Below are positions 19,308-20,959 of a stretch of 64,000 nt of DNA, piece by piece. This DNA comes from Lindgomyces ingoldianus (lineage: Eukaryota; Ascomycota; Dothideomycetes; Pleosporales; Lindgomycetaceae). The stretch covers positions 919,120 through 983,119 of the forward strand of contig NW_022985163.1 in the NCBI RefSeq assembly GCF_010093535.1, read 5' to 3'. Under the pieces are notes generated by a model that saw only the letters and a list, made by a program, of their open reading frames with translations, had not been told where the DNA came from and did no database searches. Made by a program: the position numbers and the translations under genes. The first letter of the stretch is position 1. Each line of letters opens with the position of its first letter.

Positions 19308-20327
19308 TTACTCGCATCCACAGCCCGGCTGACCTCGGCGCTTGAACTCATGGTAAGCCTTGGCAACGATGTGACCGATTTTTTCTGGCTCCAGCCGCAG
19401 GATTCCATTCGAACTTCTCTTCTGAAAGGCCCCAACCGCCTTCAATTTCTCATCATACAGAACACTCCTCTCAAGTAAGAACATACCAGAATCAGGATAT
19501 CCACGCTCAATTCTCTTCTTCCCTTCTTTTATTGACTCTTCGACATGCTCATATTCCACGCTCCATTTCTTGCCAGAGGATCTCTCTAGACAAGCCAAGA
19601 CGTCATTTGCCGTTGTCAAAACGCCTGCGGCATATAGGTAGCGGTTTTTGACTTGGTCCCAGTGCTGAATGATATTCGCTACCACATTCCCAGCTCTTTC
19701 GAGACTTGAAACGGCAAATGGTTCGGTTCCGGTTCCGTGGATGGTGACACTTTGCCATTGCATGTCGAAGCCGAGATCGCCGGCCACGAGGACATGATCA
19801 AGGATACAGCCAACGGACACAGCGGCCCATTCGAAATCGAGGTGGGTTCTGGAGAGGTCATGAAGGTATCTAACGACCTTGGCGCGGTCTGCGCTTCGCG
19901 GTAATCTTTCGTGTACAGCTTCATTAAGGGAATCGTGTCCAAATTCATGGGGCACGAAGCGTTTGACTCCTGCGAGGACCGCAGCATCGATTACTCGGGC
20001 TTGAAAGTTGTAGTCCCCTCCGGCTATCGTATTTATGACCATGTCTTGCCCGGAAAATGAAGATTCTAGGGACGGCACAGAGAAGTCAGATGTCCTGTGT
20101 TCGACTAGGTTTGGGGGAGTATTTGGGGGTAGCCACGGCGTTTGGGAGGGGTAAGTTAACACAGAGACGTGATACGGCGTACTGACGTCGGTTAGGGATT
20201 TCTGCAGCAGGGCACTAAGGATTGAGAAGGAGAGTTGTCGATTCTGGTGAGTATGTTGTTAGCAAGGGAGGGCTCGCAGCTGGAAGTGTAGATTTACGCC
20301 AATGATCAAGACATTTCTGATGTCCAT
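19308..20327 (-). CDS. NmrA-like / isoflavone-reductase-like NAD(P)-binding protein
   Basis: Atypical short-chain dehydrogenase of the NmrA/PCBER group; either a reductase or a redox-sensing regulator. Exons on the minus strand: 20327-20298 (MDIRNVLIIG) and 20243-19308, separated by a 54-bp intron (GTAAAT, GCTAAC, CACCAG); 321 residues. The body shows typical elements: GQDMVINTIAGGDYNFQ, AAVLAGVKRFVPHEFGHD, IHGTGTEPFAVSSLERAG and YLYAAGVLTTANDVL, covering the central Rossmann strands and substrate loop. The N-terminal dinucleotide motif is odd: after VLIIG the exon continues NRQLSFSILSALL, so the expected GxxGxxG is shortened and two glycines are replaced. Either the intron boundary differs from my model or cofactor binding is altered. 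It is transcribed divergently from the nuclear atp8 gene, 263 bp apart. Confidence 0.83.
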
Positions 20328-20590: not shown

Positions 20591-20959
20591 ATGAACTCGA
20601 CACGCCTTTTCCGCCCAATTGCGCGGGCCTTCCGCCAACCTGCAATACTCCGATCAACCACCATGGCCCGTCCCGTCGTCGCCGACGCCCAAGTCAAGGC
20701 CCAGAAGACCGAAGCTCAGGCTCCCACTCAGCAGATGGTACTGCCCGACTTTCACCCTCGCCTTCCTATCAACCCCAAGCTAACACCCCCACAGACGATC
20801 CTCAAGTCGGCCATGCCGCAGCTAGTCCCCTTCTTCTTCGTCAACGAGACCACCGCAGCCTTCATCTTGCTCCCTTCTCTCATCTACGTCCTCTCGAAAT
20901 ACATCTTGCCGCAGCGGGTCCGCATGATGGCTGCTCGTCTCTTCATTAGCAAGCTCTAA
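20591..20959 (+). CDS. atp8: Nuclear-encoded ATP synthase F0 subunit 8, mitochondrial precursor
   Basis: Stator subunit of the mitochondrial F1F0 ATP synthase, inserted in the inner membrane. Exons 20591-20737 and 20795-20959 encode 103 residues; the 57-bp intron (GTACTG, GCTAAC, CCACAG) is in phase and stop-free, so it can be mistaken for coding. The last 48 residues begin MPQLVPFFFVNE, contain one membrane helix (AAFILLPSLIYVLSKYIL) and end in the basic ARLFISKL; this is the complete length and pattern of fungal ATP8/A6L, including its ancestral initiator Met. Ahead of it lie ~55 residues with a classic mitochondrial presequence (MNSTRLFRPIARAFRQP, Arg rich, no acids) and an Ala/Gln/Lys linker. 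Exon 1 supplies the targeting part and exon 2 the old mitochondrial gene, suggesting functional relocation. It uses ordinary nuclear codons, so it is not a recent mitochondrial DNA insertion. Confidence 0.9.
   Translation: MNSTRLFRPIARAFRQPAILRSTTMARPVVADAQVKAQKTEAQAPTQQMVLPDFHPRLPINPKLTPPQTILKSAMPQLVPFFFVNETTAAFILLPSLIYVLSKYILPQRVRMMAARLFISKL

What the first reader, a model, noticed from the sequence alone, without database searches (positions are those of the whole stretch)
20591..20959. Mitochondrial atp8 relocated to the nucleus, built from a presequence exon plus an ATP8 exon
The second exon carries a complete 48-residue fungal ATP8 (MPQLVPFFFVNE to ARLFISKL) with its old initiator Met, and the first exon supplies an Arg-rich mitochondrial presequence. 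ATP8 is one of the last genes kept in fungal mitochondrial DNA; artificial nuclear expression is known to be difficult because of its hydrophobic helix. A natural, intron-bearing nuclear copy shows how the transfer was solved. Loss of mitochondrial atp8 is reported for some Dothideomycetes; the identity of this copy is from family knowledge and the relocation is inference.
Basis: partly seen in the sequence, partly recalled or inferred. Interest (0 to 1): 0.82.

Follow-up and report, generated by a model that had tools for sequence, protein, structure and literature searches.

The report
Nuclear-encoded mitochondrial ATP8 in a fungus
A small ATP-synthase gene that most fungi keep in their mitochondrial DNA sits here in a nuclear chromosome with an import signal and an intron; this relocation is real but already published for this group of fungi, though it looks older and more widespread than the passages I read say.

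Summary
Exon 1 (20591-20737), a 57-nt intron (20738-20794) and exon 2 (20795-20959) give a 103-residue protein, identical to an NCBI gene model of Lindgomyces ingoldianus (Pleosporales). Residues 56-103 match Pfam Fun_ATP-synt_8 end to end (E 2.9e-18). A working nuclear ATP8 with a presequence is well supported, but not new: Franco et al. 2017 (PMC5626475, passages) reported nuclear atp8 and atp9 in Stemphylium, and PMC11167856 (passages) says neither was detected in any Pleosporales mitogenome reported to date. The remark that artificial relocation of ATP8 is hard is not supported. Two comparative points seem new: (1) an intron exactly six codons before the old Met occurs in several Dothideomycete orders, so the transfer probably predates Pleosporales. 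(2) Pro at ATP8 position 21, in the membrane helix, occurs in 86 of 90 long database forms but in 0 of 8 mtDNA-encoded ATP8s; it may let the helix pass TIM23 for conservative sorting, an untested idea. The strain's mitochondrial genome appears absent from the assembly, so loss of the mtDNA copy could not be tested; no RNA was available.

The parts
20591..20737 (+). Exon 1: 49 codons, N-terminal mitochondrial presequence and linker (MNSTRLFRPIARAFRQPAILR...QQM)
   Evidence: amphipathicity; exon-1 peptides of 19 of 21 named non-Pleosporales proteins tested score above all their shuffles
20738..20794 (+). Spliceosomal intron, 57 nt, phase 0, no in-frame stop; branch-point-like CTAAC, 3' site CACAG
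   Evidence: absent from the gene model P0001; position shared with relatives
20795..20812 (+). Six codons of exon 2 before the old initiator Met (TILKSA)
20813..20959 (+). Complete 48-residue fungal ATP8 plus stop
   Evidence: PF05933 1-48/48, E 2.9e-18; GC3 0.80 against 0.06-0.25 in seven mtDNA atp8 genes
20873..20875 (+). CCT codon for Pro21 of ATP8, within the membrane helix
   Evidence: Pro21 in 86 of 90 long database forms; no Pro in residues 14-30 of 8 of 8 mtDNA-encoded ATP8s

Best explanation
This is a functional nuclear gene for ATP synthase subunit 8, moved from mitochondrial DNA in an ancestor of many Dothideomycetes and inherited since. Shown: intact coding region, nuclear base composition, presequence-like first exon, and an intron at the same place in relatives. 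Inferred: the 103-residue precursor is made in the cytosol, its N-terminal amphipathic helix takes it through TOM and TIM23, and the presequence is cut off. The short single-helix protein then reaches the matrix and is inserted by Oxa1 with its N-terminus outwards, joining the Fo sector. A proline in the helix may help the segment avoid arrest at TIM23, where a stop-transfer protein would end up with the opposite topology.
For: Identical annotated protein and a Pfam end-to-end match. One match in the assembly. GC3 of the ATP8 part is 0.80, against 0.06-0.25 in seven mtDNA atp8 genes. Amphipathic Arg-rich N-terminus without acidic residues in its first 30 positions. Conservation: 25 invariant columns in a 15-sequence alignment, all in the ATP8 part. 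An ATP9-type gene is also in the nuclear assembly. Mitochondrial atp8 not detected in Pleosporales mitogenomes reported to date (PMC11167856 passages); nuclear atp8 with a TargetP presequence in Stemphylium (PMC5626475 passages). Gln, as a 3'-terminal CAG of an intron would give, stands seven before the old Met in 41 of 55 unnamed proteins, and in only 5 of 68 named models, one of which reads through the intron. Spliced forms on short environmental contigs such as P0018 (1,176 bases) and P0053 (1,067 bases) suggest transcripts. PMC11452304 passages: conservatively sorted proteins often carry prolines and lower hydrophobicity in their helices.
Against: No RNA or protein data for this strain. 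No mitochondrial genome found in the assembly, so a second mtDNA copy is not excluded. TargetP or MitoFates was not available. The proline step rests on correlation: most nuclear forms probably descend from one transfer, so it counts as one or few events. P0130 (long, named) lacks the proline, and P0082, P0102, P0103 and P0108, which may be nuclear, lack it too. One mtDNA form (L010, hydropathy 1.48) is less hydrophobic than the mean of the long forms (1.74).
Confidence: 0.93

Rival explanations
1. A recent non-functional insertion of mitochondrial DNA in the nucleus (NUMT), with exon 1 a chance open frame.
For: Only the sequence similarity to a mitochondrial gene.
Against: Nuclear GC3, same two-exon structure and similar exon 1 in other orders, strong conservation, and an NmrA-like rather than mitochondrial frame upstream.
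Confidence: 0.02
2. A nuclear ATP8 that coexists with a mitochondrial atp8 in this strain (dual state, for example differential expression).
For: The mitochondrial genome was not found in the assembly, so this is untested. Mycosphaerellaceae keep mitochondrial atp8 (PMC7999263 passages), while Extremaceae of the same order have a nuclear form with the same intron position, so a dual state existed somewhere if the transfer was single.
Against: Mitochondrial atp8 was not detected in Pleosporales mitogenomes reported to date according to PMC11167856 (passages).
Confidence: 0.04
3. The retained intron frame matters: with 57 nt and no stop, an unspliced mRNA gives a 122-residue isoform with 19 extra residues.
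For: Frame stays open; six relatives closest to Pleosporales also give in-frame read-through proteins, one of them an NCBI model, P0056 of Ascochyta clinopodiicola.
Against: The inserted stretch varies in length (16 to 22 residues) and sequence among those six, and listing full-length read-through ORFs selects for open frames. P0001 itself is spliced.
Confidence: 0.03

Closest known systems
Nuclear atp8 (locus TW65_04673) of Stemphylium lycopersici, Franco et al. 2017, PMC5626475 (passages seen)
   Same: Same order, same relocated gene, N-terminal extension with predicted mitochondrial targeting, atp9 also nuclear.
   Different: The passages seen do not describe the intron, the spread beyond Pleosporales, or the helix proline. 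They suggest loss after the split of Dothideomycetidae and Pleosporomycetidae, whereas nuclear copies with the same intron position also occur in Extremaceae (Dothideomycetidae).
Nuclear ATP9 genes of Podospora anserina (PMC3420929, passages)
   Same: Relocated small hydrophobic Fo subunit with presequence; reduced hydrophobicity of a membrane segment needed for import.
   Different: Different subunit with two helices; its nuclear expression in yeast needed that reduction, whereas yeast Atp8p needed only a targeting sequence and recoding.
mtDNA-encoded ATP8 of yeast and other fungi (PDB 6b2z; L009-L015)
   Same: About 48 residues, same start MPQLVPF and similar end.
   Different: No presequence; the seven mtDNA genes read are open without an intron and have AT-rich codons; no proline in residues 14-30 in any of the eight.

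Membership tests
Fungal ATP synthase subunit 8 (PF05933) | Profile match over the full model above the gathering score | tested here: met
   E 2.9e-18, 66.2 bits, model positions 1-48 of 48
Fungal ATP synthase subunit 8 (PF05933) | Alignment to a solved Fo subunit 8 | tested here: met
   6b2z chain A, query 1-48 to chain 1-48, E 3.3e-10; the organism, yeast, is recalled, the table names the molecule ATP synthase protein 8
Fungal ATP synthase subunit 8 (PF05933) | Assembled in the Fo sector of ATP synthase | not testable with these tools
   Needs biochemistry
Functional mitochondrion-to-nucleus gene transfer | Gene lies in a nuclear chromosome | tested here: met
   Window is C2:919120-983119 of a 68.4 Mb assembly; P0001 is on a 2,763,343-base contig
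Functional mitochondrion-to-nucleus gene transfer | Mitochondrial presequence gained | tested here: met
   By composition and amphipathicity only; no dedicated predictor was available
Functional mitochondrion-to-nucleus gene transfer | Nuclear-type codon use and a spliceosomal intron | tested here: met
   GC3 0.80 against 0.06-0.25; shared intron position; splicing itself not observed
Functional mitochondrion-to-nucleus gene transfer | Organelle copy lost | not testable with these tools
   No cox1 or atp6 found in the assembly; literature says not detected in Pleosporales mitogenomes reported to date
Functional mitochondrion-to-nucleus gene transfer | Transcribed, translated and imported | not tested
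   No RNA or protein data; spliced relatives on short contigs are indirect

The most novel reading that the evidence does not exclude
ATP8 moved to the nucleus once, before the main Dothideomycete orders split, and before atp9 followed in Pleosporales. The relocated protein gained a proline in its single membrane helix that switches it from TIM23 arrest to conservative sorting, so that it can adopt the N-out topology its mtDNA-encoded ancestor got by direct Oxa1 insertion. The retention of mitochondrial atp8 in Mycosphaerellaceae would then be a relic of a long dual-copy stage.
Probability: 0.3. Interest if true: 0.62.

Novelty: new member of a known kind. Interest (0 to 1): 0.36.

Why it matters
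Why some genes stay in mitochondrial DNA is an open question, and transfers of atp8 are counted as rare (fewer than six, passage of PMC10809612). This gene adds one clean example with exact anatomy. The comparison it prompted gives two testable points: the transfer seems older than the Pleosporales event described in the passages read, and a single helix proline may be the adaptation that makes import with correct topology possible. Botryosphaeriales, with nuclear atp8 and mitochondrial atp9, would show the order in which the two genes left.

Tried and rejected
NUMT reading rejected (shared two-exon structure, nuclear codons). Search for a donor of the presequence: exon 1 as query in the own genome returned only itself, so no donor gene was found at E <= 1. 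Search for mtDNA in the assembly: no cox1 or atp6 match; apart from atp8 and atp9 other mitochondrial genes were not tried. Looking for close mtDNA relatives of P0081 in viral contigs found none; the nuclear-type alignment also found none there. Bacterial promoter scan is not informative for a fungus. Exon-1 similarity to Extremaceae is not supported (P0139: 10 of 200 shuffles as good; P0140: 123 of 200), so for that family only the intron position speaks for common origin. No tree was built, because 48 sites seemed too few; no structure was predicted. Literature searches that could show the proline or the older intron in print; their listings showed no paper that says so by title or abstract start, but I opened passages of only 11 papers, the library lacks most subscription journals, and supplements were not open to me.

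Full report
What is there. The stretch 20591-20959 on the + strand is open as 122 codons. Taken as two exons (20591-20737, 20795-20959) around a 57-nt intron, it encodes 103 residues, the same as an annotated NCBI protein of Lindgomyces ingoldianus (P0001). By NCBI taxonomy that species is Dothideomycetes, Pleosporales, Lindgomycetaceae. Residues 56-103 match the Pfam family Fun_ATP-synt_8 end to end and align over all 48 residues with ATP synthase protein 8 of solved structures (6b2z, yeast by recall). No other PF05933 match was found in the 68.4 Mb assembly.

Is it nuclear and adapted. The GC at third positions of the ATP8 part is 0.80. In seven atp8 genes on AT-rich fragments that I take for fungal mitochondrial DNA it is 0.06-0.25 (L009-L015). 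By eye, the neighbouring frames under code 4 look like atp6, cox or nad genes in six of them and like atp9 in L009. The N-terminus is Arg-rich, has no acidic residue in its first 30 positions, and is more amphipathic than all but a 0.003 fraction of 5000 shuffles. The nuclear assembly also holds an ATP9-type frame (L003; PF00137 E 4.7e-14). No cox1 or atp6 match was found, so the mitochondrial genome appears not to be held and the strain's mtDNA copy could not be checked.

What is known. All papers named here were seen as passages only. Franco et al. 2017 (PMC5626475) state that Stemphylium lycopersici mtDNA lacks atp8 and atp9, found both in its nuclear scaffolds, and predicted mitochondrial targeting by TargetP. 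[quoted passage not shown] PMC11167856 says neither gene was detected in the Pleosporales mitogenomes reported to date. PMC7225605 notes atp8 missing in nine of 20 fungal mitogenomes it analysed. The finding is therefore a further case of a published relocation. The phrase search (six phrases on nuclear atp8) returned only PMC5626475. [quoted passage not shown]

How far it reaches. Three protein searches returned 148 distinct proteins; one search listed only the best 120 of 343 hits and scored only 7,989 candidates, so the reach may be wider. Named hits include Pleosporales and other Dothideomycetes: Lepidopterella, Mytilinidion, Lophium (recalled as Mytilinidiales), Phyllosticta, Lasiodiplodia, Aplosporella, Saccharata (Botryosphaeriales; Lasiodiplodia checked, the others recalled), Verruconis (Venturiales), Venturia and Tothia (Venturiales, recalled), Pseudovirgaria (Acrospermales), Rhizodiscina (Aulographales), Bogoriella (Trypetheliales), Coniosporium (incertae sedis), and Extremus and Vermiconidia (Extremaceae, Mycosphaerellales, Dothideomycetidae). 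One MAG is labelled Pyrenula (Eurotiomycetes).

The intron. Of 68 usable named proteins, the residue seven before the old Met is Met in 51, Leu in 7 and Gln in 5. Of those five, P0056 (Ascochyta clinopodiicola) is an NCBI model that reads through the intron. Of 55 unnamed proteins with at least seven residues before the core, 41 have Gln there, as expected if CAG ends an intron at that point. The other 14 are seven that look spliced (P0004, P0018, P0030, P0035, P0045, P0053, P0119), two mitochondrial-looking (P0080, P0081), two tandem-ATP8 ORFs (P0109, P0112) and three unclear (P0082, P0083, P0108) (the grouping of the 14 is mine). A further 23 unnamed proteins are too short upstream to tell. 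Pairwise alignments show the inserted stretch starting with Val (GT) after exon 1 and ending with Gln six codons before the old Met in six pairs closest to Pleosporales, one Coniosporium pair and one Extremaceae pair (in the last the aligner set the gap one residue later). P0138 against Tothia fits within one residue. P0074 found no close spliced partner. ORFs starting inside the intron show the same boundary for sequences that look closest to Botryosphaeriales and Venturiales (by eye). A profile of 43 Pleosporales exon-1 peptides (order by recall) scores 19 of 21 non-Pleosporales exon-1 peptides above all of their 200 shuffles, some by only 2.8 to 4.3 bits (P0124, P0118, P0113). It fails for the two Extremaceae proteins, and the own ATP9 presequence, used as the single real control, scores no better than shuffles. 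I infer one ancient transfer with its presequence and intron already in place; for Extremaceae the evidence is the intron position alone.

Fit with mitogenomes. Botryosphaeriales mitogenomes are described as holding atp6 and atp9 with no atp8 listed: Macrophomina (PMC8451660) and Phyllosticta yuccae (PMC10815617, text and gene table). PMC4366305 finds atp9 but not the atp8-atp9 pair in N. parvum. Nuclear atp8 proteins of other Botryosphaeriales are in the hit list. So atp8 seems to have left first and atp9 later, in Pleosporales. Against a simple loss, Mycosphaerellaceae keep mitochondrial atp8 (PMC7999263), which under a single transfer needs a period with both copies.

The proline. Among 90 database proteins with at least 40 residues before the core, 86 have Pro at ATP8 position 21; the window gene, identical to P0001, also has it. 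The four others are P0083 (Pro22), P0109 and P0112 (tandem ATP8 units; P0112 begins with what I recall as a COX1 C-terminus, so probably mitochondrial), and P0130 (Pyrenula MAG, none). Of the 68 usable named proteins 67 have Pro21. In 57 shorter proteins, 47 have a Pro in residues 14-30 and 10 do not (P0080-P0082, P0102-P0108). Some of those 10 look nuclear (P0082, P0102, P0103, P0108), which counts against necessity. P0079 could not be scored because its reading lacks the core start. None of 8 mtDNA-encoded ATP8s (seven fragments and yeast) has a Pro in residues 14-30. Mean Kyte-Doolittle hydropathy of residues 14-32 is 1.74 for the long forms (91 rows, window gene counted) while the eight mtDNA forms range from 1.48 to 2.57, so at least one mtDNA form lies below that mean. 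[quoted passage not shown] 2005, which I could not open. That ATP8 has its N-terminus outside is recalled knowledge. That the proline is an import adaptation is my inference; it may be a single founder change, or ancestral in Dothideomycete mtDNA, whose ATP8 sequences I did not obtain under a name.

Verdict. A real, intact, very probably functional nuclear ATP8 gene; ordinary for its order; the comparative pattern is the part worth following.

Noticed in passing
L011-L015 (NZ_BMRP01000034.1, NZ_BMCE01000010.1, CANQPA010000017.1, JADBKX010000149.1, NZ_JACJRE010000084.1); L009, L010 (IMG/VR): Contigs labelled as Streptomyces, Fictibacillus, Tolypothrix and two bacterial MAGs, and two called viral, carry what look like fungal mitochondrial genes (atp8, and atp6, cox, nad or atp9-like frames read by eye under code 4): contamination or misclassification.
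   Followed up: partly
P0112 and P0109 (environmental proteins): ORFs with two (P0112) or three (P0109) tandem ATP8 units joined by the linker NSLPKPHPFVNLPLQSG; P0112 begins with a COX1-like C-terminus (recalled), suggesting a mitochondrial cox1-atp8 read-through with duplicated atp8, or an assembly artefact.
   Followed up: no
P0130 (MAG labelled Pyrenula ochraceoflavens, Eurotiomycetes): Its exon-1 peptide matches the Pleosporales exon-1 profile (28.7 bits, 0 of 200 shuffles as good) but its ATP8 helix has no proline: mis-binning, horizontal transfer, or a transfer older than the class.
   Followed up: partly
P0116 and P0117 (two Lasiodiplodia models): They differ by one Gln at the exon junction (AKM|TMLYAG against AKM|QTMLYAG), as a tandem CAGCAG acceptor would give.
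   Followed up: no
window 19308-20162, - strand: NmrA-like NAD(P)-binding protein frame (PF05368, E 9.9e-14) upstream on the other strand; not a mitochondrial gene.
   Followed up: no
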